Below, one piece after another: positions 1 to 24,228 of a stretch of DNA of 24,228 nt. A program made the translations under genes and the position numbers. Positions within the stretch are counted from its first letter, which is position 1. The number at the start of each line of letters is the position of its first letter. The notes under the pieces are model-generated. The model was not told where the DNA came from, did no database searches, and saw only the letters and a list, made by a program, of their open reading frames with translations. The DNA is taken from IMG/VR virus record IMGVR_UViG_3300030116_001245, positions 1 to 24,228 of that record. One strand, given 5' to 3'. This stretch comes from a virus.

Positions 1-1
1 T

Positions 2-235
2 CGTATATGCTGTAATCCTCACCATCTGCGTTGGGGTACTCATCAGGATAATATGGATGACATGAAGGAACGTGATCGTCATGGTATGCCTAAGACTGTG
101 GTACGTGCGATACTAAAGTTACGTGATGAAGGTAAGTCTCAGCGAGAAGTAGCTGAGTTATATGGCATAGCTAGGGAAACTATCTCAGCTATAGAAACTG
201 GAAGGAGTCATAAGGGGTTGACAAACAATGATTAA
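2..235 (+). CDS. HNH homing-type endonuclease, C-terminal fragment (5' end outside window)
   Basis: The frame is open from base 2, so the gene starts before the window and 77 codons are visible; the first internal ATG (53) is not a credible start. The visible part opens with CCNPHHLRWGTHQDNMDDM, the second half of an HNH_3-type nuclease core (C-x-NPxHL-x-x-GTxxDNxxDM), in which the Asn and His belong to the metal/catalytic site. After it, roughly residues 32-70, lies a helix-turn-helix (KSQREVAELYGIARETISAIETG) of the kind that ends many phage HNH endonucleases and helps bind target DNA. Such free-standing enzymes nick or cut DNA and spread between phage genomes. The gene is followed by a strong terminator. 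The family call is firm; the target and activity are unknown. Confidence 0.85.
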   Translation, partial: RICCNPHHLRWGTHQDNMDDMKERDRHGMPKTVVRAILKLRDEGKSQREVAELYGIARETISAIETGRSHKGLTNND

Positions 236-322
236 TATGTTTAGTCTAACTTACATCATGATTTCCTTTCTTGATTAAACCCAAGGGCAGTTGGCCTCCC
301 TGACTTTCTTGGGATAAACTTG

Positions 323-367
323 AAGCCCTATGATAAACAAAATATCATAGGGCTTTTCTTTTTATTT
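323..367 (+). terminator. Intrinsic terminator after the HNH gene
   Basis: A perfect 13-bp stem (AAGCCCTATGATA at 323-335 with TATCATAGGGCTT at 343-355) closes a 7-nt loop and runs straight into a T-rich tract (354-367, broken by single C and A). This is a textbook rho-independent terminator for plus-strand transcription leaving the HNH gene. It insulates the replication operon that begins at 410, which therefore needs its own promoter nearby. A weaker repeat, CCCAAG (280-285) with CTTGGG (308-313), lies just upstream. Confidence 0.9.
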
Positions 368-409
368 TGTTTATGTTATATTTAATTAGTACTAACAATG
401 GAGGGGTTC

Positions 410-1312
410 ATGGATAACGTAGTACAACTAGTTCCAAACAAAAGTATAGTTAAGAGAGAGGATTACTTTAGTGATGATAGTCCTTTATACTTTCAGACAT
501 GGGAAAGACCTGTGTATTTCTCAGGACATGGTGATAAGATGTATGAGAATCCTAATTATAAAGCGATAGTTAGGGTAGATGAACTAAACAATCCAACACA
601 GATAGGCATGGTAGGTAGGAACTATAAAGTTATACCTATGAAAGATATATGTAATGAAGTAGAGAACAGTCTTTGCGAAGTGATAGAGCCTGAACATCTA
701 GAGCAGGTTAAGACCAGAGACATGATGTCATATAAAGGAGGTATGCTGTTTAAGGAGTATACATTCCCAAGTATAACATTTAGAATTGCCGATGATGATA
801 TAGGATTTAGAATCATAATCATCACAGCATATGATGGATCAACATCATTTAGATTATATACTGGCGCAATCAATTTCTTCTGTCTTAACGGCATGGTCGA
901 TGGACAGTTCGAGATGCTAGTACGTAGACATACTAGTGGACTCACTATCCCTAGCATGACTGATCGAATCAAGAAAGGTGTAGAGATATTCCACACAAGA
1001 GCAGAGACATATCAAAGATGGATAGGCAAGACTATATCAGATGAAGATGCGAAGACAGTGTTTGAAGCAATACCCAACGTGTCTGAGCGCAGAGTAGATC
1101 AGCTAATGAATCAATACTTTCACGAAGCAATACGATATGGCAGAACTGTCTGGGCTTTGTACAATGCTGCTACATTCTATTCATCACACGATGAAGGTGA
1201 TTTCTCTGTTAGGAACACAGGCAATGATAACACTGCTGCTACACTAATGAATCGTGAGAGACAAATCAGGACGTGGGAAAACTCTGACACATTTAAACAA
1301 CTTGCTGCATAG
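410..1312 (+). CDS. DUF932-like phage protein
   Basis: A protein of 300 residues. I start it at 410, not at the in-frame ATG at 398, because GGAGGGG at 400-406 is an ideal ribosome site for 410 and would lie inside the gene otherwise. The middle of the protein has the pattern of the DUF932 (phage/plasmid LF812-type) family: a YKAIVR...YKVIPMKDI segment, then SYDGS-like AYDGSTSFRLYTGAINFFCLNGMV, then an amphipathic helical tail. DUF932 proteins are common in phage replication/recombination regions and are often suggested to act with recombination proteins, but the biochemical role is not settled. It is first in the operon, ahead of the nuclease, Sak4-like ATPase and SSB candidate. The family call is moderately sure; no enzyme activity is assigned. 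Confidence 0.6.
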   Translation: MDNVVQLVPNKSIVKREDYFSDDSPLYFQTWERPVYFSGHGDKMYENPNYKAIVRVDELNNPTQIGMVGRNYKVIPMKDICNEVENSLCEVIEPEHLEQVKTRDMMSYKGGMLFKEYTFPSITFRIADDDIGFRIIIITAYDGSTSFRLYTGAINFFCLNGMVDGQFEMLVRRHTSGLTIPSMTDRIKKGVEIFHTRAETYQRWIGKTISDEDAKTVFEAIPNVSERRVDQLMNQYFHEAIRYGRTVWALYNAATFYSSHDEGDFSVRNTGNDNTAATLMNRERQIRTWENSDTFKQLAA

Positions 1313-1320
1313 GAGGCATC

Positions 1321-2820: not shown

Positions 2821-2821
2821 T

Positions 2822-3892: not shown

Positions 3893-3893
3893 T

Positions 3894-4700: not shown

Positions 4701-4712
4701 ACAAAGTATCGT

Positions 4713-4803: not shown

Positions 4804-4834
4804 AATGTCACAGATAATGAAAGGAAAAAGTATC

Positions 4835-5350: not shown

Positions 5351-5366
5351 ATGAAAGGAAATTGTG

Positions 5367-5765: not shown

Positions 5766-6044
5766 ATGACATATCCGAAAACTATATCAATACCACTTCC
5801 ACAAGATATACCTCGTGCCAGAGGCATCCATAGTACTGGAGGCTTTGGTGGAAATTTACGAGTGAGGTGTACCGATGATGAGAAGTTGTTAGTTCAATCC
5901 ATAGCAAATGATTTGGGGATTACTATGTCCTCTTTCTCTCGATGGTGCATTGTTCATTCAGCACAATCATTGAAGGAACATCAAAATGCTACAACAAGTT
6001 CAACCAACAACAACGGAGAATTACATGGTTCTTCGACAAGGTGA
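5766..6044 (+). CDS. Ribbon-helix-helix (Arc/CopG-like) DNA-binding protein
   Basis: A protein of 92 residues from the ATG at 5766; AAGAGGGG (5751-5758) is seven bases upstream. Residues about 30-70 have the ribbon-helix-helix order: a short strand NLRVRCT, helix DDEKLLVQSIANDLG, a tight turn (ITMSS), then helix FSRWCIVHSAQSLK. Proteins of this fold bind DNA as dimers through the strand and often repress their own promoter, which would fit the TTGACA box just upstream. The last 18 residues are a Ser/Thr/Asn-rich tail whose codons overlap the start of the helicase gene. A mobilisation-type RHH is an alternative, but no relaxase is present. Confidence 0.6.
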   Translation: MTYPKTISIPLPQDIPRARGIHSTGGFGGNLRVRCTDDEKLLVQSIANDLGITMSSFSRWCIVHSAQSLKEHQNATTSSTNNNGELHGSSTR

Positions 6045-7320
6045 TCTAAAGGATATAGAAAGAAATGACTTTCAATATGATGAAGACCAACTTACAGCTA
6101 TCGATCATTGTCTCGACCCAAGCAGACGTGTCGTTGCTATCACGGGCGAGGCCGGAACTGGTAAGACTACTATCATGCAAGATGTCTATAGACTCTGGAA
6201 AAAGCGTGGTAAAAATGTGGTCTTATGCGCTCCAACTGGGAAAGCTGCGAAGCGAATTACGGAAGCAACTGGGATTACAGCCTGTACCATCCACCGCTTA
6301 CTTGAATATCCTATGCCCGGAGAAATAGATGAGAACACTGGCAAGGCTCTCGTAAGTACTGATCCTAAAAGAGATAGGATGAATCCAATAGATTATAATG
6401 TCGTGTTAGCTGACGAATATGCAATGGTTAATACTGAAGTACATCGTAATCTTCTAGACGCATTACCAAGTGGCGGTTTAATTAGAATGTTTGGTGATGC
6501 TAACCAACTCCAACCAATTGAAGGTAGTAAGAATAGAAAGAAGAAGTATGAGTCACCATTTGTACGGATGCTTGCTAAGTTTGAGGGTACATGGTTAAAG
6601 AGTATTCATCGACAAGCTGAAGATTGTAGCATCATATCTAATGGACATAAAATTATTCACGGCATGATACCTGCTCGTAAAGATGACTTCGCAATGAAGA
6701 TTACTGATGAGCCTGTACATTCTGTAGAAGATTTTGTCATGGATAATCTTACTAATGGCATTGACTTTGGCACTACCGCACATCAAATCATATCACCAAC
6801 TAAGCAAGGATGGATAGGAACCACAGCACTTAACGCCACCATCCAAGGACTACTACAGAATTCAGACAAAGATAGTATAGAACTTGATCGCCATAAGTGG
6901 TCAAAGCAAGAGTATCTTCGTGTCTTTGTTGGTGATAAGGTCATCCAAACAGTTAATCAATATCCATTAGAAGTATTCAACGGAGAAACTGGCATCATTA
7001 AATCATTCGATGAAGCTGGTGGTGTCGTTATAGACTTTGGAGATAAGACTGTCACCATTCCATACACATTAGAAATGTCTGGTAGACAGGGAACCTACTA
7101 CATCAACCCACAAAAAGACTTAGACTTAGCATATGTAATCACTACGCACAAAGCTCAGGGCAGTGAGTACGATGAAGTCTGCTACATAATGAATCAGTCT
7201 CGGTCTTGGCAACTAAATAGAAAGAACTTTTACACAGGAATTTCACGAGCAAAACATAAAGTCACAGTTATCACCGATCAAAAGTCCCTATCATTAAGCC
7301 TAAGTAGAAAAGGGGAATAA
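6025..7320 (+). CDS. SF1B DNA helicase, RecD/Dda-like
   Basis: A protein of 431 residues from the ATG at 6025 (GGAG at 6015-6018); an in-frame ATG at 5986 also has an AAGGA and would add 13 residues. Motifs with the shorter start: Walker A GEAGTGKT (41-48), motif Ia APTGKAAKR, Walker B DEYA (130-133), motif III GDANQLQP (157-164), HRQ (195-197), motif V THKAQGSEYD (374-383) and motif VI YTGISRAK (403-410). This full set in a short protein is typical of phage Dda/RecD2-type 5'-3' helicases, which strip proteins from DNA or help forks start. It probably serves replication with the downstream PolA. It overlaps the RHH gene by 20 bp. Confidence 0.9.
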   Translation: MVLRQGDLKDIERNDFQYDEDQLTAIDHCLDPSRRVVAITGEAGTGKTTIMQDVYRLWKKRGKNVVLCAPTGKAAKRITEATGITACTIHRLLEYPMPGEIDENTGKALVSTDPKRDRMNPIDYNVVLADEYAMVNTEVHRNLLDALPSGGLIRMFGDANQLQPIEGSKNRKKKYESPFVRMLAKFEGTWLKSIHRQAEDCSIISNGHKIIHGMIPARKDDFAMKITDEPVHSVEDFVMDNLTNGIDFGTTAHQIISPTKQGWIGTTALNATIQGLLQNSDKDSIELDRHKWSKQEYLRVFVGDKVIQTVNQYPLEVFNGETGIIKSFDEAGGVVIDFGDKTVTIPYTLEMSGRQGTYYINPQKDLDLAYVITTHKAQGSEYDEVCYIMNQSRSWQLNRKNFYTGISRAKHKVTVITDQKSLSLSLSRKGE

Positions 7321-7322: not shown

Positions 7323-7535
7323 ATGCATATAGGTGGAGCCGAGTTTGTCATGGGTGTATCTCAGGAAACAGACGACATGGATGATTATTCAATGGCATTA
7401 AAGATTATTGTCTATGGTATGGACAATAACGATACAGTTAACAAAGTGTTTGAGGCTTTGTCTCAAGCACTATTAACACTAGATCCTCAACTAGAGCTAG
7501 CGGAGATTAAAGGTGACAAATCCCATATCAATTGA
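7323..7535 (+). CDS. Small hypothetical protein
   Basis: An unrecognised acidic protein of 70 residues (YSMALKIIVYGMDNNDTVNKVFEALSQALLTLDPQLELAEI), probably one strand and two helices. AAAAGGGG lies just before the ATG, only 2 bp after the helicase stop. Its 3' end contains the ribosome site and the GTG start of the next gene (23-bp overlap). Position ties it to the helicase-polymerase transcript; no function can be read. Confidence 0.6.
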   Translation: MHIGGAEFVMGVSQETDDMDDYSMALKIIVYGMDNNDTVNKVFEALSQALLTLDPQLELAEIKGDKSHIN

Positions 7536-7815
7536 CAGAATTGCTAAACGATTTTGTGATTCAGCTAACGAATTAATTACTGGTGATAGATCTATCTCGC
7601 ATGGTGATGCTGGCGTTAACTTTCAAACTATAGCTGAGTTGTGGAGTGCTTACCTAAACGTAAGTATCTCCGCAAGTCAGGTTCCCTTAATGATGGTGTT
7701 ACTTAAACTAGCTAGAATTAAGAATGGTAAATTTAATGAAGACGACTATGTTGATATGTGTGGTTACTCAGCATTAGCAGGAGAAATAGCTACGAAGGCA
7801 GAATCAGATGAATGA
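7513..7815 (+). CDS. DUF6378-like phage protein (GTG start)
   Basis: A protein of 100 residues. The pattern HGDAGVNFQTIAELWSAYL, followed by ISASQVPLMMVLLKLARIK and DDYVDMCGYSALAGE, is that of DUF6378, a small all-helical family common in phage replication regions, with conserved His-Gly-Asp and Asp-x-x-x-Asp acids that could bind metal or a nucleotide. The start is a GTG with GGAG seven bases upstream inside the previous gene. It overlaps the polymerase gene by 8 bp, which suggests coupled translation. The family is fairly sure, its job is not known to me. Confidence 0.7.
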   Translation: MTNPISIDRIAKRFCDSANELITGDRSISHGDAGVNFQTIAELWSAYLNVSISASQVPLMMVLLKLARIKNGKFNEDDYVDMCGYSALAGEIATKAESDE

Positions 7816-10234
7816 ACAGGAACTACTGTCCGAGTTTACTAAGAAAGCTAGAACAGCAGGTCTACAAATTGACTGCTTAGGATCAGGAGACATTAACAGT
7901 GAGTTGGCTATCATCGTGGAAGCTCCGGGAGAAAACGAAGCTAACATGAAGATGCCATTAGTCGGTGGGGCTGGCAGATTATTATGGGATATACTTAGAC
8001 CATATGGTATCACTCGTACCAACTGCTATGCCACTAATGTATGTAAGCGTAAGGTAGCATTGTCTACTAAGACTGACGCACGTAATCCAGTTAAGAAACC
8101 AGAGCTTGAACATTGGGAAGGACTCCTTGAATGGGAGCTAGACCAGTTACCCAATCTAAAGTACGTGCTAGTACTAGGAAACTTTGCACTTAAAGCTATA
8201 CTTAATGAAGACAAGATTACCTTATGGCGAGGATCAGTAGTTGATGCTGTAGTCGGACGCTCTCGTAAGCGTGTCAAAGCCATCGTCAATTATAATCCAG
8301 CAATGATATTACGTAACATGGATCTAGAACCAATCTATAAATTCGACATGGCAAAGTTAGATATGGTTATGCGTAACAAGTTTGTCGAGCATAAGATTAA
8401 AGAACACATTAATCCTACAGCAGAAGAAGCAGTAGATTGGATACGCATGATGCAGTTCAGCGAGAAGCCAGTGGCATTTGATATAGAAGTGTTGTCAAAT
8501 GAAACAGCTTGCATCGGCTTTGCTAACGATAGCCATGAAGGATACTGTGTAAACTTTAGAGATAAGAATACTAATAGATTTACTCTCGAAGAAGAGTGTA
8601 AAATATATGTAGCCTTACAGAAACTATTCTTAGATCCAGAGGTTAAATTAATAACACAGAATGGTAACTTTGACTGTTACTGGATAGGATACAAGGATCG
8701 ATTACATGTTAAACGAATTTGGTTTGATACTCTCTTGGCTCACCATACTCTTTATCCCCGGCTTCCTCATAATCTTGGTTTTCTTACTTCGCAATATACC
8801 ACCCACCCTTATTATAAGGATGAAGGACAGGCATGGAAGGAGGGTGGCGATATTGATCAATTCTGGAGATACAACGTTAAAGACTGCGCCATCACTTACA
8901 CAGTGCATGAGAAACTACATAAAGAATTGGCTGCTCAAAGTCTGGAAAAGTTTTACTTCGATCATGTCATGAAGCTGACACCACATCTTACTAGGATGAC
9001 AGTCAACGGAATCAGAGCAGACATTGGGTTAAAAGATAACATCGTCAAATCAATTGAGGCTGATGTAAATAAACTAAGCAAGCGATTCAACTTTGCAGTA
9101 CAGCAATGTACAGGTGATCCAAATCTCATAGTCAATCCTCGATCAGCACCACAGTTAGCTGACCTATTCTTTACCAAGCTAGGATTAATAGGTAGAGGAT
9201 CTACGACTAACAAGGCTAACCGCCAACGTATGTACGACCACCCACGTACATCTCCCCAAGCAAGACGAATGTTAGATATACTAGATGAGTACAAGACAGA
9301 ACATAAGTTCTATTCTGTATATGCTACTATGACTATTGACGAAGACCACCGCATTAGATGTGAGTGGAAACAGTTCGGTACTCAGTCTGCTCCCGGCAGA
9401 TTAAGTAGTTCATCTGTCATGTGGGGTAGTGGAGCTAACCTGCAAAATCAACCAAGCAGGGCATACCCTATGTTCATTGCTGATCCCGGATACATGTTTA
9501 CATACTTTGATCTATCACAAGCCGAAGCAAGAGTAGTAGCATATCAATGGGGAGTGCAAGGATTAATAGAAACATTCGAGCAAGCATCAGAAGATGATAA
9601 CTATGATGTACATCGAGGTAATGCTGCTAGAATATTCAAGTGTAACTACAATGATATACCCTCACATGATCGTGACAAAGATGGTAACATCACTAAAAGA
9701 TTCCTTGGCAAGCGTTGTGTTCATGGTCTTAACTATCGAATGCAAGCTCAAAAACTCGCAGAAGTCTGCGACATTTCACTGATGCAAGCACATGAAGCAT
9801 ACAGTGCATATCACCAAGCCTTCCCAGAAATACAAAAAGCATGGACTGATACTGTTAAGACTGTTCATTCAGAGAGAATGCTTTATACTCCTCTAGGTAG
9901 ACGCATGATATTTCTAGAACGTATACATGATGAGGCATTAGATAGTATTATAGCATTCATTCCTCAGTCTACTATTGGAGACAAGGTATCCTCAGTAATA
10001 TATAAATGTCACGAGGATGAAGAATGGCCTGACTCAGCACATGTTACCTTGAATATTCATGACGCATTAATTACTATTCACAAACCTGAAGATAAAGATG
10101 TTGTCACAAAGATCATGAAGAAACATGCAGAGTCACCTATAATAATACGAGGCCACGAAGTCAGCATACCAACTGACTTTAAACACAGTGTTCCTGACGA
10201 ACACGGAATACATAGATGGAGTACTTTAAAATGA
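7808..10234 (+). CDS. DNA polymerase I (family A) with N-terminal uracil-DNA-glycosylase domain
   Basis: A protein of 808 residues with three parts. Residues about 30-190 form a family-4/SPO1-type UDG-like domain: VEAPGENE (37-44), PLVGGAGRLL, TNVCKRK, VLVLGNFALKA, and NYNPAMILRN (161-170), where the usual His of motif 2 is Asn. Residues about 220-375 are a 3'-5' exonuclease with DIE (225-227), Asp289 in NGNFDC and YNVKD (355-359), so the proofreading residues are intact. Residues about 380-808 are the PolA core: motif A DLSQAEARV (568-576), motif B KRFLGKRCVHGLNY (630-643; Lys635, His639, Tyr643) and motif C HDA (751-753). There is no 5'-3' exonuclease domain. This is the phage replicative polymerase. 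UDG-PolA fusions are known in phages. It overlaps its upstream neighbour. Confidence 0.95.
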   Translation: MNEQELLSEFTKKARTAGLQIDCLGSGDINSELAIIVEAPGENEANMKMPLVGGAGRLLWDILRPYGITRTNCYATNVCKRKVALSTKTDARNPVKKPELEHWEGLLEWELDQLPNLKYVLVLGNFALKAILNEDKITLWRGSVVDAVVGRSRKRVKAIVNYNPAMILRNMDLEPIYKFDMAKLDMVMRNKFVEHKIKEHINPTAEEAVDWIRMMQFSEKPVAFDIEVLSNETACIGFANDSHEGYCVNFRDKNTNRFTLEEECKIYVALQKLFLDPEVKLITQNGNFDCYWIGYKDRLHVKRIWFDTLLAHHTLYPRLPHNLGFLTSQYTTHPYYKDEGQAWKEGGDIDQFWRYNVKDCAITYTVHEKLHKELAAQSLEKFYFDHVMKLTPHLTRMTVNGIRADIGLKDNIVKSIEADVNKLSKRFNFAVQQCTGDPNLIVNPRSAPQLADLFFTKLGLIGRGSTTNKANRQRMYDHPRTSPQARRMLDILDEYKTEHKFYSVYATMTIDEDHRIRCEWKQFGTQSAPGRLSSSSVMWGSGANLQNQPSRAYPMFIADPGYMFTYFDLSQAEARVVAYQWGVQGLIETFEQASEDDNYDVHRGNAARIFKCNYNDIPSHDRDKDGNITKRFLGKRCVHGLNYRMQAQKLAEVCDISLMQAHEAYSAYHQAFPEIQKAWTDTVKTVHSERMLYTPLGRRMIFLERIHDEALDSIIAFIPQSTIGDKVSSVIYKCHEDEEWPDSAHVTLNIHDALITIHKPEDKDVVTKIMKKHAESPIIIRGHEVSIPTDFKHSVPDEHGIHRWSTLK

Positions 10235-10401: not shown

Positions 10402-10468
10402 CATATTAAAACTTTCAATAGGGATAGTTATTATTGTATTATTTGTTGTGATAATTCTTAATACATGA
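10391..10468 (+). CDS. Tiny single-span membrane peptide (25 codons)
   Basis: An ORF of 25 residues that opens MVNDILKLSIG and then runs through an uninterrupted hydrophobic stretch of Ile/Val/Leu/Phe (IVIIVLFVVIIL) to end in NT. It fills the gap between the small basic gene and the DUF3987 gene exactly. Its ATG overlaps the end of the former, and its stop overlaps the start of the latter as ATGA (10465-10468), a classic coupling signal. The ribosome site is weak (AAAAG). Such a hydrophobic run of about 16-18 residues would form one transmembrane helix, possibly an inner-membrane effector or anchor. It could still be chance in AT-rich DNA, but the double fit argues for a gene. Confidence 0.5.
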   Translation: MVNDILKLSIGIVIIVLFVVIILNT

Positions 10469-11694: not shown

Positions 11695-14600
11695 ATATGC
11701 TGTTAGGTCAATGTTAATATTTCTTCTAAGTTTCCTAGACATCATTTCATTAAACTCTTGCATATGAGTTTCGATAACTTGCCATTGCATTGCTTTTAAT
11801 GTTGCAATATCTAGGTTCCATGCATCAATATAATTCTGCTTTTCTTGAGCACTTTTAGGAATAATAACTCTACCGCCTTCACCAAATAACTTATTAGCAT
11901 TTCGTGCTTGCGTTACTTTATCTTTAAGATCTTTAATTAGTCCATCCATCTTAGTAATCTCTGCCAAAATTGTAGGAGCAATGGTCATTAATTGGTGTTC
12001 TATTGGATCTTCTGTTGGAACAAGTGTGTCTCCTCCAGCAAGTAATCTTCCAGTAGCAGACATTCCACCAGTGTTAAGAATTTTTGTACGTTCAACTATT
12101 TCTGTAAGTGATGTTCTCGCTGCAAATAATTTTCTGGTAGTTTCATTGTTAGGATTAAATGACAATGTTCCCGGAAATAATGGGTTAACAAATCGAGCAG
12201 ACTTCTTTAAACCTAGTCCTGCTTCACTTAAAAATCTAGGAAAGCCTTCACTAAATGGTACTTTTACATCATCCCTACCTCCGAAGTAAGCATTTGAAGC
12301 TGCTAAAAGTGTTTGCATTCCTGCTCCACCTAACTCAGTAAGTACTGCTCCCATTCGTGTACTAAACTCATCACCTGTAGCTCTAACATTACGATCACCG
12401 CCAACACGAGAGTTTCCTCGTGGTGCTGCATGAAGAAATGAAAATGACTTTCCCTCTTCAGGATCAGTTACTACATTTAATCCTATCCTGAAATCCTTAC
12501 CTTCGTCAGCAAAAGCCATAGCTGCTCCTAATGGTGGAGGAGTTGGTATATCAAAAAATCTTGTGAGGCCAGCTAACATATGATCTCCGTTATCAGTAGT
12601 TACTCCAGCAGATAAATTAAAAAATAAATCCATTAACTCTATAGTAGTTCCTCTGACTAAACTAAACATAGGCTCGGCTGGAATAATGATGGCCTCACTT
12701 GGATGCTTACCCGGAATATATAATATCCTACTATTATTTCTCTGTTCAGGTGAGAGGAATTTCCAAAAGTGTTCTCGCTTTGTCATCTTTTGTACAGTAC
12801 CATCAGCATTTTGAATGTCCCAAGTCTGATCACCATCAGCAGTACTGTTCCATATAATTTCCATCGCTGTAGGAAATACAATTGTTCCCATAACAGCAGC
12901 ACCAAACTTACCGGGATTCTTTTTTAGCGCACGACCTGCAACAGACCACCCTTGCCACATCGCTCCCCAATATGGAATCGATGCATGAATGTTTCTCATT
13001 GTAGGATTAGATGGTAACTTGTTTACATCACCTGTTACTTCTCTAGTTTGTCGTCCTACTTCTCTCCAGAACTTTCCTTTTCCTGCACCTGTTGGAATTT
13101 CAGCTTCTCCAGCAAGTCTCATAGCTTTTGCTAATGCTGGTCCTTCGTGAAATGCATCATTTATATTCTTCCATGTTCTCCATATAAATGGTAAAGCATT
13201 AGCTCCGTAAGTTTCTCGCATCGGCATAACTACTGACTCTAATGCATTAGTAATGTTTCCACTATACGGACTACCTTGATAAGCTGAAGTAACAAGACCA
13301 CTTTCCGTCTGTAAATCTTGCATCATAACATTTTGAATTTTCTTCTGCGCCCAACCTCTAAGTGCTTTAGCTTGCTCTGGTGCTAAGTTTTGGAACAGAC
13401 CAAACTCTCGATCAAGATTTCTTGTTAAGATTGTTGATATATCTTTAGCAACATTATGACTAAGGTGTTGCCAGATTCCTCGAAACGATCCTAACCATTG
13501 TATTGCTCCTTCTTTAAATCCTTGCCCAGATGTAACAGCTAATGTAGATACTTGCTGATTATATAAGAATGCTGCAAAACCAAATGGAGAACCTCTACCA
13601 GTAGTTAAAGCCATCATATTCTTAGACCACTGATTAAAAAACTGAGGCCAATAACCTGTCAGTTTTCTATCCATCTTAATTGCAGAACGTAACAAAGGAT
13701 CAGGCACATTATAGATTAAACTTTCTCCATCTCGTGTAACTACCATTAAGTCGTCATGTTTAGCTATCCAATCCTCAATGCTAGTACGCTCATCAAAGTT
13801 AAATTTCTTTCGCACATTCTTTTCGGCACTAGTTAAAGCACCTTTTGATTTACCTTCTCCAGCTACCTGCGACCACTTAATATTACCTTTAACATTACCT
13901 AGTACATCTGAATCATATCTACCAACAAATTGTGCATGTTGTCCTGCGTTTGCATTATCAATCACAACTGTTCCTTTATGCATCCTAGTCCCAGATAAGT
14001 ACGACAGCATATTATATTCAGCATTATTTCTGTTAACAAAGTCAACTATATCATGCATGTATTGTTGAACACTACTTATAGGATCAAGTGGCTTATAGCG
14101 AGGCAGTTCTGGATCGTCTGCTATGCCCTTGAATCGAGCCATCATTCCTAGCTCTTTACCTTTAGTAGTATTATGTCCAAGTAATCTTGCAAGTCTACTT
14201 AGATAAGTACCTTTACTTGTTGTTACCATTCCGGGCAGGTAAGCATTACCAGCTTCGTCAACGAACTTAGCCTTCCATCCATCTACTATATCTTGTCTTA
14301 GTACTCTTCTTGCTACAGTGAACTTCAGCATGTCATCCATAATCGTGCTGATTTGAGTACTGAATTTGAAAAGTTCATCATCCATTTTCAGCGCATGAAT
14401 AGCTGAATTTATTGTAGTATCACTCCAAGGATTACCATCTTTGTCTCGTACAAATGACGCACCCTCACCAAACTCTGCCCTACGTTGTTTCTCTGTTCTT
14501 GCTAACAAGCCATCATTAAATATTTTCTGTCGTTCTTTGCTCATGCCCTGTAATGTACGCAAAATTGGTGCTAACTTCTCTGTTGACATAACAACATTAA

Positions 14601-16158
14601 ATGCTTCAGAAAAATTGCCACTTTCATATAGTTCTTTAACTGCTCTAACAGAATCTATACTACTAGCATTCGCTGTATTTCTGGCTATTTCCTGCGCTTT
14701 TGCAGCAGTCATACCGGGCTTAGTCATAAGTGCTTCAAACACTAAACGCTCTGCATGCGACTCTTGATCAACACCTGTTTCATATGCAGTTCTTAATTTC
14801 TTACCAGCAGTAGTTCTAGCAGCAGCATCAAGTAATCGTTTTACTACTCCACCGCTTGACTTTATTGGTCCATCTTCAACTGCACCAGTAGTCGGAGATT
14901 CTTCTTCGGCAGAAGCCTTTCTTTTATTTCGTTCTCTTTGTAAAAACCTTACCCATTGCGCTCGATCTTCTAATAAATTTTGTTTATATTCTACTAAGTC
15001 AGGAGCATATTGTTTATCTTTTGCTTTTTGAGCTAGCTCTTCTGGATTTTTTAATAGCTCATCAATTTCATTAATCCATTCTTCAAGTTGTATTTCTCTG
15101 TTTGATTTTGTTGCGGCTTCTGGCCCTGTCCATCCTTGCTCTTGAGCAGTTTTAAGTGGTCTTTCACCACCTTTAATAGGCATATCTTTTGTTAAATCTG
15201 ATGGATATCCTTTAATATAATTTTTGTTCTTACCTAGAAGTGCGAGTAATCCTATAAGAATAGAACCACCAATACCTTTCTTAATTAACTCAGTCCGTTC
15301 ATTGTCTTCTAACTTACGATCCATCGCTATGTCGCTGTCCGTTTGGCTATTAATCTCATCATTAACTTCCTGTGTACTTACTGCTTCATAGTCATCAAAG
15401 TTAAGTCCTTGAGGAGCACCATCTGGGGGAGTATCTTGTGGTGCAAGAACAGTTGCTCTTGCTTTTTCCCACTCGGCTCTTGGAATACCACCAGTTCCCC
15501 CTAACCATGTCGGTCTGGCATTAGGATTCCACATTGTAGGCATAAGTGTAGCTGCTGGAGTATTTTGTAATGCTTCATCTGACTCTATATATGCTCTCAT
15601 TCCTTGATCCATGCCCCCACCAATACCAAGTTGAGTTAGTCCTCGTGCTATTGTTTGTTTCTTTGTTCCTGCTTTAACAAAAGGAGTTACAGTTCTAATA
15701 AGTGCTGGAGCCATTCCTGCTCCTTTAGTTATCCATCCCGGTCCGGGAATAGCAAAACTAGCAGCAAGTCGTAAAGGTTGGTCAAGTAATGAAACTGGTT
15801 CTGGTATGTCTAATAGTTTGTTTACTCCCATACGCATTCCATGACTAAACTTAACGAATGGGTTTTCACCTAAATTTTTCATGAACTCTGTTCCCCAACT
15901 AGTATTAGGATCATCATCTCTTTGAACAGTAGTTGCAACTAACTCGTGAAGCATTCCCGGAACAGCAGGAATACCTGTTAATATGTCTGATAGACCAGCG
16001 ACACCTTGCTTTACTGGATTTACTGGGAGTACTCTATCTTCGGGAGGTGTGGAATCTACTTGTTGTTTTCCTAGTGTCGGATTAACAGTAGTTGGTTTAA
16101 CTTCATAGGCACTGAAATCGGGGGCTGACTTAGCTTCATAAGCAGAAAAATCAAGCAT
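11647..16158 (-). CDS. Giant virion/ejection-type protein (LPD38-like C-terminal region)
   Basis: A protein of 1503 residues, the largest in the window. The N-terminus has two copies of DFSAYE (3-8 and 14-19) then low-complexity, Pro-rich sequence. One hydrophobic segment lies near residue 295 (GGSILIGLLALLG). The middle is long, helical and charged. The C-terminal half (MDRKLTGYWPQFFNQWSKNMM, then ASIPYWGAMWQGWSVAGRAL, then SRILYIPGKHPSEAIIIP) recalls the LPD38-type region found in large phage polyvalent/internal proteins. It ends a run of four structural-type genes, much as T7 gp16 ends the internal-core set, so a capsid-internal protein ejected into the host is likely. No transglycosylase or protease motif was found. 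Only the domain likeness is uncertain; the gene is certain. Confidence 0.85.
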   Translation of the reverse strand: MLDFSAYEAKSAPDFSAYEVKPTTVNPTLGKQQVDSTPPEDRVLPVNPVKQGVAGLSDILTGIPAVPGMLHELVATTVQRDDDPNTSWGTEFMKNLGENPFVKFSHGMRMGVNKLLDIPEPVSLLDQPLRLAASFAIPGPGWITKGAGMAPALIRTVTPFVKAGTKKQTIARGLTQLGIGGGMDQGMRAYIESDEALQNTPAATLMPTMWNPNARPTWLGGTGGIPRAEWEKARATVLAPQDTPPDGAPQGLNFDDYEAVSTQEVNDEINSQTDSDIAMDRKLEDNERTELIKKGIGGSILIGLLALLGKNKNYIKGYPSDLTKDMPIKGGERPLKTAQEQGWTGPEAATKSNREIQLEEWINEIDELLKNPEELAQKAKDKQYAPDLVEYKQNLLEDRAQWVRFLQRERNKRKASAEEESPTTGAVEDGPIKSSGGVVKRLLDAAARTTAGKKLRTAYETGVDQESHAERLVFEALMTKPGMTAAKAQEIARNTANASSIDSVRAVKELYESGNFSEAFNVVMSTEKLAPILRTLQGMSKERQKIFNDGLLARTEKQRRAEFGEGASFVRDKDGNPWSDTTINSAIHALKMDDELFKFSTQISTIMDDMLKFTVARRVLRQDIVDGWKAKFVDEAGNAYLPGMVTTSKGTYLSRLARLLGHNTTKGKELGMMARFKGIADDPELPRYKPLDPISSVQQYMHDIVDFVNRNNAEYNMLSYLSGTRMHKGTVVIDNANAGQHAQFVGRYDSDVLGNVKGNIKWSQVAGEGKSKGALTSAEKNVRKKFNFDERTSIEDWIAKHDDLMVVTRDGESLIYNVPDPLLRSAIKMDRKLTGYWPQFFNQWSKNMMALTTGRGSPFGFAAFLYNQQVSTLAVTSGQGFKEGAIQWLGSFRGIWQHLSHNVAKDISTILTRNLDREFGLFQNLAPEQAKALRGWAQKKIQNVMMQDLQTESGLVTSAYQGSPYSGNITNALESVVMPMRETYGANALPFIWRTWKNINDAFHEGPALAKAMRLAGEAEIPTGAGKGKFWREVGRQTREVTGDVNKLPSNPTMRNIHASIPYWGAMWQGWSVAGRALKKNPGKFGAAVMGTIVFPTAMEIIWNSTADGDQTWDIQNADGTVQKMTKREHFWKFLSPEQRNNSRILYIPGKHPSEAIIIPAEPMFSLVRGTTIELMDLFFNLSAGVTTDNGDHMLAGLTRFFDIPTPPPLGAAMAFADEGKDFRIGLNVVTDPEEGKSFSFLHAAPRGNSRVGGDRNVRATGDEFSTRMGAVLTELGGAGMQTLLAASNAYFGGRDDVKVPFSEGFPRFLSEAGLGLKKSARFVNPLFPGTLSFNPNNETTRKLFAARTSLTEIVERTKILNTGGMSATGRLLAGGDTLVPTEDPIEHQLMTIAPTILAEITKMDGLIKDLKDKVTQARNANKLFGEGGRVIIPKSAQEKQNYIDAWNLDIATLKAMQWQVIETHMQEFNEMMSRKLRRNINIDLTAYSPRSNLMKESTSSPN
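16102..16152 (-). repeat. Tandem DFSAYE repeat coding for the N-terminus of the giant protein
   Basis: Residues 3-8 and 14-19 of the 1503-residue protein are identical (DFSAYE), spaced 11 residues apart, each followed by a short Lys/Pro linker. At DNA level the two copies are similar but not identical, so it is a conserved peptide motif or old duplication, not a recent slip. It may be a scaffold- or portal-binding tag. Confidence 0.7.
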
Positions 16159-19524: not shown

Positions 19525-19526
19525 AT

Positions 19527-19967
19527 CTAACTCAAAAATAACTCTCGTTCAATTGCTCTACGTCTTACTAGTCCAGCAAGTATTCTTCCACCAGCCCTTC
19601 GCCATTTTGGAAACTCATCTGCTGCACCAATTCTATCATCCCTATTTAGTTTAGATCTAAGTGTACTCGACTGAAGGTTTCCACTTCCAATGTTATAACA
19701 CAGTGAACATAGTGCGCTAAATTCATTACTGTCTAATTGTACTCTCATTAGCTTACTTACTGTTTTTTCACTTTGCTCCAGATCCAAACGCAACAACTCC
19801 TCAGCTTCTTCGTAATTGATAGGTTCCATATCCATCGTGACAGGTCTACCATTAATCCTAGTAGTCCCGAACCCAATTGTTGTAACCCCTGCACTACACT
19901 TGTAAGGGCGTTTTTCAAAGCCTTCAAATGTCTTAATAATATTAATTCCAGCATCATTGCACCTCAT
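19527..19967 (-). CDS. Endolysin: GH24 lysozyme (T4/P1-type)
   Basis: A protein of 146 residues that cuts the peptidoglycan glycan strand. From the ATG at 19967 the catalytic residues are Glu15 (TFEGF), Cys24 (PYKCSAG) and Thr30 (VTTIGFGT). The 9- and 6-residue spacings are the same as Glu42-Cys51-Thr57 of P1 Lyz. LCYNIGSGNLQSSTL and GRILAGLVRRRAIERELFL are the standard downstream family motifs. An open frame extends upstream to a TTG at 20006, but the ATG is preferred because the small gene upstream stops 5 bases before it and GGGGAAG precedes it. There is no SAR or signal segment, so it depends on the holin for release. Part of the holin-peptide-lysozyme cassette. Confidence 0.9.
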   Translation of the reverse strand: MRCNDAGINIIKTFEGFEKRPYKCSAGVTTIGFGTTRINGRPVTMDMEPINYEEAEELLRLDLEQSEKTVSKLMRVQLDSNEFSALCSLCYNIGSGNLQSSTLRSKLNRDDRIGAADEFPKWRRAGGRILAGLVRRRAIERELFLS

Positions 19968-19972
19968 TATTC

Positions 19973-20071
19973 TTAATGTCTTCCCCACATTTTCTGCCAC
20001 AACCAATTATCAAGTCTCGTTACCTTTTTAGAAACCCAACGAACTGGCACACTTCGCCAAATTCCCTTCAT
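19973..20071 (-). CDS. 32-residue Trp-rich basic peptide in the lysis cassette
   Basis: An ORF of 32 residues that opens MKGIWRSVPVRWVSKKV and ends WLWQKMWGRH, with five Trp among many Lys/Arg. Its ATG overlaps the holin stop as ATGA (20068-20071), and its TAA lies 5 bases before the lysozyme ATG, so it fits the gap exactly. Amphipathic Trp/Arg-rich peptides tend to bind membrane surfaces, so it may help holin or lysozyme action or act as an antiholin. That role is inference. It is too short for ordinary gene finders. The ribosome site is only the GAAGAA within the holin end, in keeping with coupled translation. No family recognised. Confidence 0.6.
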   Translation of the reverse strand: MKGIWRSVPVRWVSKKVTRLDNWLWQKMWGRH

Positions 20072-20517: not shown

Positions 20518-20521
20518 TATA

Positions 20522-20713
20522 CTAGTCCTCTCCTTTAAGTCTTTCTAATCTAACAAGTACAGATGCACACTGTTCTATGTGCCTTCGTAAATTCTTAGTA
20601 TTAATAGGAGCAGTTACTATGTGTGGTTCTTCACTACCATTCATATATTCCAGAACTATGTGTGCTAGTCCTGTATATTCTCCAGCCCTCTTTTCTAATG
20701 AACAACTAATCAT
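20522..20713 (-). CDS. Small hypothetical protein before the holin
   Basis: A protein of 63 residues from the ATG at 20713, which forms an ATGA overlap with the phosphoesterase stop and has GGAAGAG six bases upstream; a longer in-frame start at 20728 is less likely. The chain has an N-terminal beta section (SCSLEKRAGEYTGLAHIVLEYM) and a C-terminal helix (NLRRHIEQCASVLVRLERLKG). It is soluble, with two Cys. No family is recognised. Its end carries the ribosome site of the holin gene, so it belongs to the lysis transcript. Confidence 0.55.
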   Translation of the reverse strand: MISCSLEKRAGEYTGLAHIVLEYMNGSEEPHIVTAPINTKNLRRHIEQCASVLVRLERLKGED

Positions 20714-21738
20714 CGGTTTCTCTTCCATGTTAAGTACTCTGCTCCCTCTTCAATGTCAGCAAATGGTTTAATACGTCTAGTTAATGCAGATTCTAATGGA
20801 TCAATAACAAACATAATACTTGCTCCTTGAATATTATCATGAAATCCATGTCTCGTAGCAAATTCATCTATCCATTTATATCCTCTGGCCCTAGCTAAAC
20901 ATACAACTCGTCCATCATCAAGTTCTTCTTGAGTCATTGCCCAATTATGATGATGTCCAGCTATATAAATGTCTGCGTGTTCTCCCCAAAGTGCTGCCCT
21001 TTTTTGTCCATGTAGCCTATTATATATAGATGTACCTTTATGATTATGTGAAGCATCTATTTTAATCTCAACATCATTAGGGAATGACAGCATAAACTTT
21101 GCTCTCCAATCTGCCATAGGTATTTTATGTGCATTGAGTGTTTTAAGATATGTAGAGAACTCTCCATCCATTGCATCGTGATTCCCCATCAGCCATACGA
21201 TCCAAGGAATTCCACTGTCTTCTAGAAACCATCGAGCAAGTCTTCGCTCAGTTTTACGACTAACATCATTCTCTGCATATAGTCTTATAAGATTTCCATA
21301 GCTCCAGTTATCAGCAGTATCCCCAAGGTTTACACAATATACACCATCGGTATTAGCTAATGTATCTATGTCAGATCTTAACAATGGAATGTTACAGCCA
21401 TTAGATCCAAGATGAGGATCACCAATAAATGTAATACCCACAGGCTTATCGTCTTTTATTTTAACTTTAAACCACTTCATTGAATCTTCGTAAGCTAACC
21501 TATTTGTAAATCGTTTTCCCATATGGTCCAGGATTTCTTCCGCAGATATGTCATCATCAGGAAATGTTGGAAGTTCTACGTTTTCTACGCTTGTTGGTTC
21601 TTTTGTAACTTTAAGAAGTCTCTTAGCTTTTGAATTTGATATTCCTAGTTGTCGTGCTACCTCTGCTTTATTATGTAATTCAGCATAAAGGTTGTGTGCC
21701 TCAATGACCTCTGGATGGTCAGTTGTATAAGTCGTCAT
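20710..21738 (-). CDS. Calcineurin-like metallophosphoesterase with HTH-like N-terminus
   Basis: A protein of 342 residues. The metal-site motifs are complete: GDPHLG (106-111), GDTADN (139-144), GNHD (185-188), His231/His233 and GHHHNW (261-266), so a two-metal phosphoesterase is nearly certain. It could be an Mre11/SbcD-like nuclease, a phosphodiesterase or a nucleotide hydrolase. Residues about 8-45 (EVIEAHNLYAELHNKAEVARQLGISNSKAKRLLK) form a helix-turn-helix-like unit, as in phage proteins of this type that may bind DNA. A TGAGG ribosome site precedes the ATG. The setting between tail genes and the lysis cassette is curious for a nucleic-acid enzyme. The substrate cannot be read. Confidence 0.85.
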   Translation of the reverse strand: MTTYTTDHPEVIEAHNLYAELHNKAEVARQLGISNSKAKRLLKVTKEPTSVENVELPTFPDDDISAEEILDHMGKRFTNRLAYEDSMKWFKVKIKDDKPVGITFIGDPHLGSNGCNIPLLRSDIDTLANTDGVYCVNLGDTADNWSYGNLIRLYAENDVSRKTERRLARWFLEDSGIPWIVWLMGNHDAMDGEFSTYLKTLNAHKIPMADWRAKFMLSFPNDVEIKIDASHNHKGTSIYNRLHGQKRAALWGEHADIYIAGHHHNWAMTQEELDDGRVVCLARARGYKWIDEFATRHGFHDNIQGASIMFVIDPLESALTRRIKPFADIEEGAEYLTWKRNR

Positions 21739-21761
21739 ATTATTGCCTCAAGTTATTGATA

Positions 21762-22335: not shown

Positions 22336-22625
22336 TAAGGCTTAGTAGGCCAAGTAATTGTTTTAACAACAGTGGAGTCGTCATACTTAGAAGGTAAGTC
22401 TCGTAGATCCTGACGATACTTTTTCATCTCATCCGAAAGAGTTACATCACTTAAAGCATAGAAATCAGTTTCAGCCAACTTCCCATCTCGCTCTGCCCTT
22501 AGACTTTCAAATGCTCTCTTTGGAGCAGCGTCAGCCCAAGCCTTCTCTTCTGCTTCTCTTGCTTTTTGTTCGTCATCAGTGAGTTCTACCTCAACCCCAT
22601 CGACCATCTTTTTATAATTTGCCAT
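22335..22625 (-). CDS. Phage tail-assembly-chaperone-like protein
   Basis: A protein of 96 residues. The line LRAERDGKLAETDFYALSDVTLSDEMKKYRQDLRDLPSKY and the closing WPTKP form the well-known phage signature (R-x-x-R-D-x-x-L-x-x-x-D ... Y-R-Q-x-L-R-D-l-P ... W-P) of small tail-fibre assembly/chaperone proteins that sit directly after tail-fibre genes. It has exactly that position here. Its job would be to help fold or attach the fibres. The N-terminal 40 residues are an acidic helix. A strong AGGAGAA-type ribosome site precedes the ATG. The exact role has not been tested for most members. Confidence 0.7.
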   Translation of the reverse strand: MANYKKMVDGVEVELTDDEQKAREAEEKAWADAAPKRAFESLRAERDGKLAETDFYALSDVTLSDEMKKYRQDLRDLPSKYDDSTVVKTITWPTKP

Positions 22626-22637
22626 TTTCTTCTCCTA

Positions 22638-23279
22638 TTAGGCGTGTTTAATTTTATACAAAGTAAATCGTCCTGTAGAAATGTTTCCACTAGACATTAA
22701 AAATTGGAACGCATCACTCGCTCCAGCAGCAGCTACACTTGCAGCACCATGCATAACATGAATTGAGGAGAAAGAGGATGATCCGTGTGCTTTTCCTACT
22801 ATCCAAGTCATTGTAGTACATATATCTGAATCTGAAGGGTCATAAATATACAGTGTGAAGTTAAAATTACTACCAGCAAAAGTGTTATCTATATGTCCGG
22901 GATCAGTGCCAGATATATGGATTTCAGTATCTGCTCCACTCCCTTTTGTTGTGACGTTTGTAGTTGTATAATTGATATCCACAATCCACCCATAAGCAGA
23001 CGCAGACGAAATATAGCTGCTTCCTCCATCAGTGCTGTGCCTTAGATACAAGTTAGCATTGTCAGTTGCTGGCCTAATTCCACTACCTTGTATTACCCAG
23101 ACATCGGCAGAATCATCTACTCCTGTAAAAGAGATATTAGCTGTATCACTTGCTGCTGAAGTCGAAACAAGTTCCATAGGACTTGCAGAACCCCAAGTGC
23201 CATTCCCAAGTAAGGCTGTAGATGCACTAGCAGTACCAGTAGCACTTATCATCCCCACATCTATCTTAGTTTGCGACAT
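22638..23279 (-). CDS. Tail-fibre-like protein 2 (paralogue of the upstream gene)
   Basis: A protein of 213 residues, rich in Ser/Thr/Gly/Ala and beta strand. It aligns with the next gene upstream: ISATGTASASTALLGNGTW corresponds to LSATGTASSSTFLRGDNAW, then VSTSAASDTANISFTGV to VSTTTASNVSDVSFTNM, then IRPATDNAN to VIPATDSVT, and SSGNISTGRFTLYK to SSGNIESGIFKQFR. It lacks the N-terminal 110-residue part of its paralogue. Such modules are found in distal tail fibres or spikes that touch the host surface. A GGAGAA site precedes the ATG. Confidence 0.7.
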   Translation of the reverse strand: MSQTKIDVGMISATGTASASTALLGNGTWGSASPMELVSTSAASDTANISFTGVDDSADVWVIQGSGIRPATDNANLYLRHSTDGGSSYISSASAYGWIVDINYTTTNVTTKGSGADTEIHISGTDPGHIDNTFAGSNFNFTLYIYDPSDSDICTTMTWIVGKAHGSSSFSSIHVMHGAASVAAAGASDAFQFLMSSGNISTGRFTLYKIKHA

Positions 23280-23288
23280 TAATTTCTC

Positions 23289-24194
23289 CTAAGCGTTTGG
23301 CCGTCTAAATTGTTTAAAAATTCCGCTTTCAATATTACCAGACGAAAAGCTAAATTTAACTGCTACTATAGCTTCCGTGACATTATGATGACCTCCCATC
23401 TCACCATTTCCTATTTCATCATTCACATTACTGAAACCAAAATAATTTCCACCAAAGCAGGTTATTGTTCCCGAAGCTGCTGGATCAAAAATTGTAAATT
23501 CTATTGCCGAAGTACGCTCGTTGGATGCTGAACCCCACGCCTCTTGTGTCATTAATATTTTTGATGAGTATTCACCACTATCGCCATCGCCTCCATCATG
23601 CCTACCAGTACCAATGCCTCTATAATCAGAAGTTCTATAGGTGGGACCGGATACTCCTAATAGCGTATCAAATGTAACACTGTCGGTAGCTGGAATTACA
23701 TTTACCATCTGATAAAGATAGTCATACCCAGTGGCCATATTGGTAAATGACACATCAGATACATTACTAGCAGTAGTTGTGCTAACAAACTCATAGCCAC
23801 CTCCTGCTGGAGCAGCCCATGCATTATCTCCCCTGAGAAATGTAGAACTAGATGCTGTACCTGTTGCACTAAGTTCGGCTATTCCGATTGCGTCATCGGC
23901 CATTGCAGCATTGTTTACACCTCCAGCACTTACAGCAGTTGCGGTATTTACTGTACCAGATTTAAAATATTGGAAGGTAACTACATTGTTAGTCCCAGAT
24001 GGTGTTGCTGAGGTAGTGCTAAGAGTTGATCCACTTACTGTAAAGTCTACGTTAGGTACTTGTTCTACTCCCCCAACCACTAATCTAGTTGCTTGAGTTG
24101 TACCAATTTCATCTAAGGTAAAACTAGAGCCACCTCCATTGTGTCGTTTTACTGAAGGATCAAGTTGTTTTAATCCTGTCAAAAAGTTGCTCAT
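23289..24194 (-). CDS. Tail-fibre-like protein 1
   Basis: A protein of 301 residues. The N-terminal part (about 1-110; residues 36-80 read ATRLVVGGVEQVPNVDFTVSG...TFQYFKSG) is the beta-unit seen in many phage fibres (GV.Q.P..DFTVSG motif). A collagen-like Ala/Gly/Thr linker follows, then a distal domain (about 120-301) shared with the downstream gene. Receptor binding is the likely job of the distal part. AGGAGG five bases before the ATG marks a strong start. The minus-strand block continues upstream of the window, so its promoter and the other tail genes are not visible here. Confidence 0.75.
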   Translation of the reverse strand: MSNFLTGLKQLDPSVKRHNGGGSSFTLDEIGTTQATRLVVGGVEQVPNVDFTVSGSTLSTTSATPSGTNNVVTFQYFKSGTVNTATAVSAGGVNNAAMADDAIGIAELSATGTASSSTFLRGDNAWAAPAGGGYEFVSTTTASNVSDVSFTNMATGYDYLYQMVNVIPATDSVTFDTLLGVSGPTYRTSDYRGIGTGRHDGGDGDSGEYSSKILMTQEAWGSASNERTSAIEFTIFDPAASGTITCFGGNYFGFSNVNDEIGNGEMGGHHNVTEAIVAVKFSFSSGNIESGIFKQFRRPNA

Positions 24195-24228
24195 TAATAC
24201 CTCCTATACTTTCCAACCATATACTTTA

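What the first reader, a model, noticed from the sequence alone, without database searches (positions are those of the whole stretch)
1..24228. CCWGG is almost absent while CCSGG is common: selection against a Dcm/EcoRII-type site
Reading the whole window by eye I found one CCWGG (CCAGG at 21528-21532). If G+C is near 39%, chance gives about 20. CCCGG/CCGGG, which should be rarer (about 14), occurs roughly two dozen times. Nearly every Pro-Gly pair is coded CCC-GG or CCG-GG (for example in the polymerase, helicase, DUF3987 gene and giant protein), though CCA/CCT dominate for Pro elsewhere. CCTTGG and CCAAGG are present, so the bias is specific. Palindrome avoidance of restriction sites is known for phages; here it would mean the host population carries a CCWGG-cutting or repair (Vsr-like) system.
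Basis: partly seen in the sequence, partly recalled or inferred. Interest (0 to 1): 0.78.

Follow-up and report, generated by a model that had tools for sequence, protein, structure and literature searches.

The report
Phage purged of CCWGG restriction sites
This piece of a bacterial virus genome has shed almost every copy of the five-letter DNA site CCWGG, apparently to escape a bacterial cutting enzyme; this is a well-known kind of evasion, here seen to come and go within one virus family and to go along with which of two genes the virus carries at one locus.

Summary
Observation confirmed. The window has one CCWGG (21528) against 22-29 expected under composition, Markov and codon-shuffle nulls. 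All 21 prolines before GG are CCC or CCG, although CCA/CCT make up 244 of 283 elsewhere. CCWGG is the most depleted of 508 5-mer pairs. The deamination products CTWGG are not raised, so this is selection for mostly synonymous change.

Best explanation: long exposure of a probably virulent phage to CCWGG-cutting (EcoRII- or MvaI-type) restriction. Host and enzyme were not identified. In helicase relatives near-elimination recurs in distant lineages (0/74, 1/38, 1/41, 2/48) beside normal relatives. In a pattern-drawn sample of viral contigs CCWGG (14 of 79) and GGWCC (12 of 68) were the most often eliminated of 112 palindromes, so the phenomenon is common. C5-methylase/Vsr/EcoRII gene sets occur in Alphaproteobacteria.

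Unexpected: the locus between helicase and polymerase usually holds either a dNMP kinase or a DUF6378 gene. 25 of 31 DUF6378 carriers but 5 of 36 kinase carriers avoid CCWGG. CCWGG is the only palindrome whose difference between the two groups survives correction, though some others lean the same way. The link was found post hoc; host association is the simplest reading.

The parts
1..24228 (.). whole viral contig, depleted of CCWGG (1 seen, 22-29 expected)
   Evidence: virus record
21528..21532 (.). the only CCWGG in the window (CCAGG on +)
20710..21738 (-). calcineurin-like metallophosphoesterase gene (PF00149; phrog_7339 DNA repair exonuclease), holds the sole CCWGG
5986..7320 (+). exonuclease V/Dda-like helicase gene, used to find relatives; Pro-Gly at residue 111 is written CCC/CCG in 13 of 14 strong avoiders and 10 of 43 normal relatives
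7513..7815 (+). DUF6378 (PF19905) gene at the locus that holds a dNMP-kinase-like gene in many CCWGG-normal relatives
7808..10234 (+). family A DNA polymerase with an N-terminal uracil-DNA-glycosylase-superfamily domain
   Evidence: PF00476, PF03167, PF01612
3894..4700 (+). Sak4-like ATPase gene, used in the combined tree
10465..11694 (+). primase/helicase-like gene (PHROGs DNA primase; no Pfam match; one GenBank relative is labelled DUF3987)
11647..16158 (-). giant 1503-aa protein gene, no match in PHROGs or in GenBank phages by tblastn; holds 8 of the 23 CCSGG
19527..20006 (-). endolysin gene; five of the six first-listed bacterial-genome matches are named Alphaproteobacteria or Rhodospirill(ales/aceae)

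Best explanation
The phage lineage has been exposed for a long time to hosts whose Type II restriction system cuts unmethylated CCWGG (EcoRII- or MvaI-type). The part of its genome seen encodes no recognisable DNA methylase of the two families searched, so it escapes by not having the site. Mutations that remove CCWGG were selected, largely at the synonymous third base of proline in Pro-Gly pairs, where CCA/CCT becomes CCC/CCG; this accounts for the excess of CCSGG. Shown: depletion, specificity for W at the centre, the third-base route, recurrence in relatives, absence of a deamination signature. Inferred: that a restriction enzyme is the agent, and that hosts are Alphaproteobacteria.
For: Depletion under all nulls used. 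Pro-Gly codons 0 of 21 with W against 244 of 283 elsewhere. CTAGG/CCTAG 34 vs 33.4 expected and CTTGG/CCAAG 46 vs 52.3: no excess of deamination products. Aligned CCWGG sites kept: 0 of 9 (G021 to G025), 0 of 10 (L052 to G025), 0 of 3 (L051 to G025), 0 of 9 (L004 to window); the one-letter neighbours CCWGT/ACWGG and CCWGA/TCWGG are kept in 38 of 54 and 48 of 73, 24 of 43 and 15 of 29, 14 of 19 and 9 of 10, 11 of 33 and 7 of 23 in the same pairs. Near-elimination in some long relatives and normal counts in others. Method controls: T7 2 seen vs 59-87 expected, lambda 71 vs 84-120. No PF00145 in the window or in 50 relatives' records, no PF01555 in the window and 40 relatives' records. EcoRII-C domain in 11 of 385 and MvaI/BcnI domain in 9 of 385 (8 over cut-off) genomes drawn from the class of an endolysin-bearing alphaproteobacterial genome; 9 of 9 inspected EcoRII loci carry a C5-methylase (by sequence motif) and a Vsr gene next to it; one such methylase is 53% identical to E. 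coli Dcm. CCWGG methylation is reported in marine viral genomes (PMC9516812, passages and section 11 seen) and in a sea-ice Polaribacter genome (PMC12570018, passages seen).
Against: No host is known and no methylome or restriction test exists for this virus. EcoRII-C was absent from 8 genomes picked from the endolysin matches, the six first-listed and two other Alphaproteobacteria (its control genomes also gave no match, so the absence is weakly shown). The window avoids further words for which no enzyme was looked for or found. A methylase gene could lie in the unseen part of the genome, and many relatives' records are fragments.
Confidence: 0.82

Rival explanations
1. Mutational decay: a host Dcm-type enzyme methylates CCWGG and deamination turns it into CTWGG, without selection.
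For: Dcm-like methylases exist in Alphaproteobacteria. A few aligned losses are of this type: CCTGG to CTTGG once in each of the four aligned pairs that run from a less depleted relative.
Against: CTWGG words are at or below expectation. The central base alone changed, to C or G, in 5 of 9 and 6 of 10 aligned losses; in L004 to window central and second-base changes tie at 3 of 9 each. CCSGG is in excess.
Confidence: 0.03
2. A DISARM-type or other defence that marks CCWGG drives avoidance, rather than an orthodox Type II enzyme.
For: DISARM methylates CCWGG in Bacillus paralicheniformis (PMC5957327, passage seen).
Against: The same passage states that DISARM also inhibits phages lacking the motif, so losing sites should not help. 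Rusinov et al. [quoted passage not shown]
Confidence: 0.06
3. The virus itself makes a CCWGG-cutting or nicking enzyme (for instance against host DNA) and must spare its own genome.
For: Avoidance recurs within one family; a gene that looks HNH-like (label recalled from its motif, no family search run on it) is common in it.
Against: No Vsr in 35 records including the window. The HNH-like gene occurs in 9 of 12 depleted and 6 of 13 normal contigs. Other viruses avoid CCWGG as often or more: 15 of 43 and 14 of 79 against 6 of 41 family contigs.
Confidence: 0.03
4. Codon, dinucleotide or general palindrome bias, not selection on CCWGG.
For: Several other palindromes are absent from the window.
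Against: Codon shuffles that keep protein and codon use by next base give 14-33 sites; GCWGC and GATC are at shuffle expectation and GGWCC only mildly low, 13 against 16.8.
Confidence: 0.02

Closest known systems
Restriction-site avoidance by phages (e.g. T7, 2 CCWGG in 39,937 bases)
   Same: near-elimination of one Type II palindrome, in T7 the very same site
   Different: uncultured family whose polymerase matches among the 40 rows shown of 355 GenBank records are at most 27.1% identical; a broader set of absent words; avoidance gained or lost several times within the family
EcoRII restriction-modification with Dcm-like C5-methylase and Vsr
   Same: the CCWGG-cutting type of system that would drive this pattern; gene sets with all three genes found in bacteria
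   Different: found in bacterial genomes, not in this virus; no link to its host shown; cutting specificity of those enzymes not tested
MvaI/BcnI restriction family (MvaI CCWGG, BcnI CCSGG; specificities recalled)
   Same: alternative CCWGG cutter; 9 of 385 genomes, a methylase of the N4/N6 type adjoining in 3 of 4 loci inspected; one protein matches R.MvaI better than R.BcnI
   Different: specificity of these homologues unknown
Loss of site avoidance in hydroxymethylated coliphages (Rusinov et al. 2018, PMC6286503, passages seen)
   Same: a gene-content difference between related phages that goes with presence or absence of avoidance
   Different: here the difference is most significant for CCWGG, the only palindrome to survive correction, although several six-base palindromes lean the same way and CTGCAG and GCATGC the other; no thymidylate-synthase/hydroxymethylase-type gene (PF00303) was found in 29 records

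Membership tests
Restriction-site avoidance | site count far below composition, Markov and codon-shuffle expectation | tested here: met
Restriction-site avoidance | specific to the recognised degenerate set (W, not S, at the centre) | tested here: met
   CCWGG 1, CCSGG 23; aligned codons
Restriction-site avoidance | not explained by a mutational bias at the site | tested here: met
   CTWGG not enriched
Restriction-site avoidance | host carries a cognate restriction enzyme | not testable with these tools
   host unknown; only plausibility; EcoRII-C not found in 8 endolysin-matched genomes
Restriction-site avoidance | virulent rather than temperate lifestyle (where elimination is commonest) | tested here: inconclusive
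   no integrase among 24 window proteins scanned with PHROGs, no helicase relative confirmed in GTDB genomes; the window is a fragment
EcoRII R-M in Alphaproteobacteria (proposed driver) | EcoRII-C nuclease with adjacent C5-methylase | tested here: met
   9 of 9 loci inspected of 11 found; methylases recognised by motif, one by BLAST to Dcm
EcoRII R-M in Alphaproteobacteria (proposed driver) | cuts CCWGG | not testable with these tools
   only homology: EcoRII structures 3hqg/1na6, Dcm 53%
EcoRII R-M in Alphaproteobacteria (proposed driver) | present in this phage's host | not testable with these tools
   host unknown

The most novel reading that the evidence does not exclude
The gene at the helicase-polymerase locus is functionally tied to CCWGG-directed restriction: either the dNMP-kinase-like gene relieves a defence that reads CCWGG (and perhaps some other palindromes), or the DUF6378 protein belongs to a replication strategy used against hosts that carry EcoRII-type systems. 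The swap would then be a replication-gene switch between 'tolerate CCWGG' and 'purge CCWGG'.
Probability: 0.12. Interest if true: 0.65.

Novelty: new member of a known kind. Interest (0 to 1): 0.42.

Why it matters
It turns an eye-count into a measured trait mapped on the tree of an uncultured phage family. Site avoidance can serve as a fossil of which restriction systems a virus meets, and here it differs between close relatives. In the pattern-drawn sample of viral contigs CCWGG and GGWCC were the most often eliminated palindromes, which points to CCWGG restriction as a common selective pressure on phages. The kinase/DUF6378 split gives a concrete, testable genotype that goes with avoidance.

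Tried and rejected
Base-modification reading of the dNMP kinase: weakened, not excluded. Between kinase and DUF6378 carriers CCWGG differs most significantly of 103 palindromes, but CTTAAG, CCATGG, AGCGCT and others are also lower in DUF6378 carriers, while CTGCAG and GCATGC go the other way; no PF00303 gene occurs in 29 records. Viral self-methylation: no PF00145 in the window or 50 relatives' records, no PF01555 in 41 records including the window. Viral Vsr: none in 35. Host by helicase homology: 59 candidate stretches in GTDB genomes, none confirmed. Host by endolysin: 57 loci confirmed; five of the six first-listed are named Alphaproteobacteria or Rhodospirill(ales/aceae), 51-55% identical, but Hafnia and Clostridium follow at 50 and 49%, so this is a weak hint. 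Giant-protein searches found nothing. No GenBank phage matched one 20-kb stretch of one relative by DNA.

Against the kinase/DUF6378 link: it was noticed post hoc among 49 gene clusters present in three or more contigs; phylogenetic regression gives p 0.003 before correction for that screen, about 0.17 after multiplying by 49. L051 and L052 carry DUF6378 yet keep CCWGG; L077, L071, L018, L015 and L014 carry the kinase yet are low. The dereplicated count of 12 of 12 hides L051 and L052, which collapse onto the avoider L050, and L018, which collapses onto L007. Avoidance was set at observed/expected below 0.4; a floor of 4 expected sites removed none of the 67 contigs. Of 85 contigs 12 were not assayed because the locus is not fully covered, and 6 have neither gene, 2 of them low. 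Hold-out contigs under 90% identity to any discovery contig: 10 of 12 DUF6378 and 3 of 15 kinase carriers avoid.
Full report
What was checked. The window is a 24,228-base virus record, G+C 39.6%. It carries replication genes on the + strand (DUF932 protein, Sak4-like ATPase, SSB-like protein, helicase, a family A polymerase with a UDG-superfamily domain, primase-like gene) and, on the - strand, a giant 1503-aa protein, an endolysin and tail-fibre-like proteins. It is taken as a fragment: no terminase or capsid gene was recognised among the 24 window proteins scanned with PHROGs (one weak cross-match of the helicase to a terminase family, E 9e-5, disregarded; six short or partial frames were not scanned).

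The observation. CCWGG occurs once, at 21528; CCSGG occurs 23 times. Expectations for CCWGG are 22.4 (composition), 25.1 and 28.6 (orders 1 and 2) and 23.8 (maximal order). Codon shuffles that keep every protein give means of 21.9 to 24.6, and never fewer than 12 in 3000 shuffles. CCAGG/CCTGG is the most depleted of 508 5-mer pairs. All 21 prolines before GG use CCC or CCG, while 244 of 283 other prolines use CCA or CCT (p 6e-17). The excess of CCSGG is the mirror image of this swap: 21 of the 23 lie in frame with Pro-Gly.

Mechanism. Deamination of methylated CCWGG would leave CTWGG; those words are at or below expectation. In alignments with less depleted relatives every aligned CCWGG is lost (0 of 9, 0 of 10, 0 of 3 and 0 of 9 kept in four pairs), while one-letter neighbours are partly kept (38 of 54 and 48 of 73; 24 of 43 and 15 of 29; 14 of 19 and 9 of 10; 11 of 33 and 7 of 23). 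The contrast is weaker in the last pair, which is only 70% identical. The central base alone changed to C or G in 5 of 9 and 6 of 10 losses; in L004 to window central and second-base changes tie at 3 each. At Pro-Gly codon pairs in four genes, strong avoiders use S in 50 of 54, the middle group in 64 of 87, normal relatives in 41 of 196; this is partly circular, since the classes were defined by CCWGG counts. T7 and lambda behave as known under the same counts (T7 2 vs 59-87; lambda 71 vs 84-120). The simplest agent is a Type II enzyme cutting CCWGG. Published work finds avoidance mainly for orthodox Type II sites, with near-elimination in about one-tenth of viral genomes (Rusinov et al., PMC6286503, abstract and passages seen).

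Distribution in relatives. 85 rows including the window were placed on a quick helicase tree: 25 called depleted, 39 normal, 21 ambiguous. Depleted and normal rows are interspersed; with ambiguous rows left out the best tree needs 12 changes. Some calls are mild, and four sets of identical helicases carry different calls, probably because short contigs lack power. In 27 contigs of 13.5 kb or more, not dereplicated, strong depletion of CCWGG (under 0.3 of expectation, p under 1e-4) is seen in 7, the largest number for any of 128 palindromes: window 1/25, G005 1/38, G006 1/41, G025 2/48, G018 5/24, G037 4/55, G038 0/74; CTGCAG follows with 6 of the 15 contigs that can be judged and GAWTC with 6 of 27. 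Normal contigs include G020 48/68, G032 63/51, G028 27/31. With a stricter cut (15%) in 41 family contigs of 8 kb or more, CCWGG is strongly avoided in 6 of 41, behind CTGCAG (11 of 13), CAGCTG (10 of 14) and four others. G037 and G038 also nearly lack GANTC (6/167 and 6/130), as do the CCWGG-normal G034 and G040 (5/142, 8/109).

How common it is. In 43 non-family contigs of 8 kb or more that share only a related endolysin, 15 strongly avoid CCWGG, the next word GGWCC 4 of 39; after clustering, 9 of 22 clusters hold such a contig. In 120 contigs drawn by an arbitrary 14-mer, CCWGG is eliminated in 14 of 79 contigs with enough expectation and GGWCC in 12 of 68, nearly the same share; these are the two highest counts of 112 palindromes. 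So the finding is strong but of a common kind.

Possible source of the pressure. Of 57 endolysin matches in bacterial genomes, five of the six first-listed are named Alphaproteobacteria or Rhodospirill(ales/aceae) at 51-55% identity, with Hafnia and Clostridium next at 50 and 49%; a marine origin is inferred from isolate names. From the class of one of these genomes (taken as Alphaproteobacteria from its record title; the search names no genomes) 385 were searched: EcoRII-C domains in 11, MvaI/BcnI domains in 9, of which 8 over cut-off. In 9 of 9 EcoRII loci inspected, a C5-methylase (by motif) and a Vsr gene adjoin the nuclease; two of the nine nucleases are only 29% identical to the query; in 3 of 4 MvaI-like loci an N4/N6-type methylase adjoins. 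One nuclease matches EcoRII structures, one Vsr matches solved Vsr endonucleases, one methylase is 53% identical to Dcm over 377 aligned columns. None of 8 endolysin-matched genomes has EcoRII-C, in a search whose controls gave no match either. Seong et al. report CCWGG as a methylated motif unique to viral genomes in their ocean set, in a clade that also shows GANTC methylation (PMC9516812, passages and section 11 seen); a sea-ice Polaribacter genome shows CCWGG methylation (PMC12570018, passages seen).

Gene-content link. Screening 49 gene clusters in 25 labelled contigs (12 depleted, 13 normal; two intermediate contigs unlabelled) showed a P-loop gene in 12 of 13 normal but 2 of 12 depleted contigs. 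It matches deoxynucleoside monophosphate kinase (phrog_139; Pfam DNMK below its cut-off) and lies between helicase and polymerase; many avoiders have a DUF6378 gene there instead. Of 73 contigs in which the locus could be judged, 36 carry the kinase (pooled CCWGG 580 of 778), 31 DUF6378 (113 of 532), 6 neither (30 of 65), none both. 25 of 31 DUF6378 and 5 of 36 kinase carriers are below 0.4 of expectation. On a four-gene tree 7 independent well-supported pairs differ in the gene; on average 5.4 agree with avoidance, 0 disagree, 1.6 do not differ (median p 0.06), and phylogenetic regression gives p 0.003, uncorrected for the screen. Dereplicated at 80% identity: 12 of 12 DUF6378 and 4 of 23 kinase carriers avoid, with the exceptions L051, L052 and L018 hidden by the dereplication. 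Among 103 palindromes CCWGG differs most significantly between the groups (0.09 vs 0.71 of expectation, p 8e-5, the only one to survive correction by 103); CTTAAG, CCATGG and AGCGCT are also lower in DUF6378 carriers, CTGCAG and GCATGC lower in kinase carriers. This leans towards a host-linked allele rather than a general protective modification, without excluding the latter. Three papers in the library mention DUF6378 with phage (listing only); none was read.

Other absent words. The window also lacks ACSGT, CGCG and CGNCG. CpG pairs 2 or 3 bases apart are absent in the window and in G006, but present at spacings 4 to 12. Of 85 contigs (70 and 69 with enough expectation for CGNCG and ACSGT) only these two pass the test for CGCG and CGNCG avoidance, and only the window for ACSGT. 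The window's sister L001 (80.5% DNA identity) has 9 CGCG, 4 CGNCG and 4 ACSGT at aligned places, none kept in the window; other CpG words also turn over fast there (GCGC 2 of 9 kept, ACSGA/TCSGT 5 of 18).

Limits. No host, no methylome, a fragment, and an association found after looking. The restriction reading rests on pattern and precedent.

Noticed in passing
window 1-24228; G006 (L090-L092): CGCG and CGNCG are both absent from the window and from the distant relative G006; no other of 85 contigs passed the test, and the window's sister L001 has them. No enzyme was looked for.
   Followed up: partly
window 1-24228: ACSGT (ACCGT/ACGGT) is absent against about 16 expected; ACWGT is common. 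The only one of 85 contigs to pass the test.
   Followed up: partly
window 7513-7815; L036, L063 and others: dNMP-kinase-like or DUF6378 gene, never both, between helicase and polymerase, going along with CCWGG avoidance.
   Followed up: yes
L069, L070, L077, L079, L083: Distant members of the family nearly lack GANTC, the CcrM-type site (association with CcrM recalled).
   Followed up: no
L277-L285: EcoRII-like nucleases of (taken as) Alphaproteobacteria lie beside a C5-methylase and a Vsr gene in 9 of 9 loci inspected.
   Followed up: partly
L332-L451: In 120 pattern-drawn viral contigs GGWCC is almost as often eliminated as CCWGG (12 of 68 against 14 of 79).
   Followed up: no
window 7808-10234: Family A polymerase with an N-terminal uracil-DNA-glycosylase-superfamily domain.
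   Followed up: no
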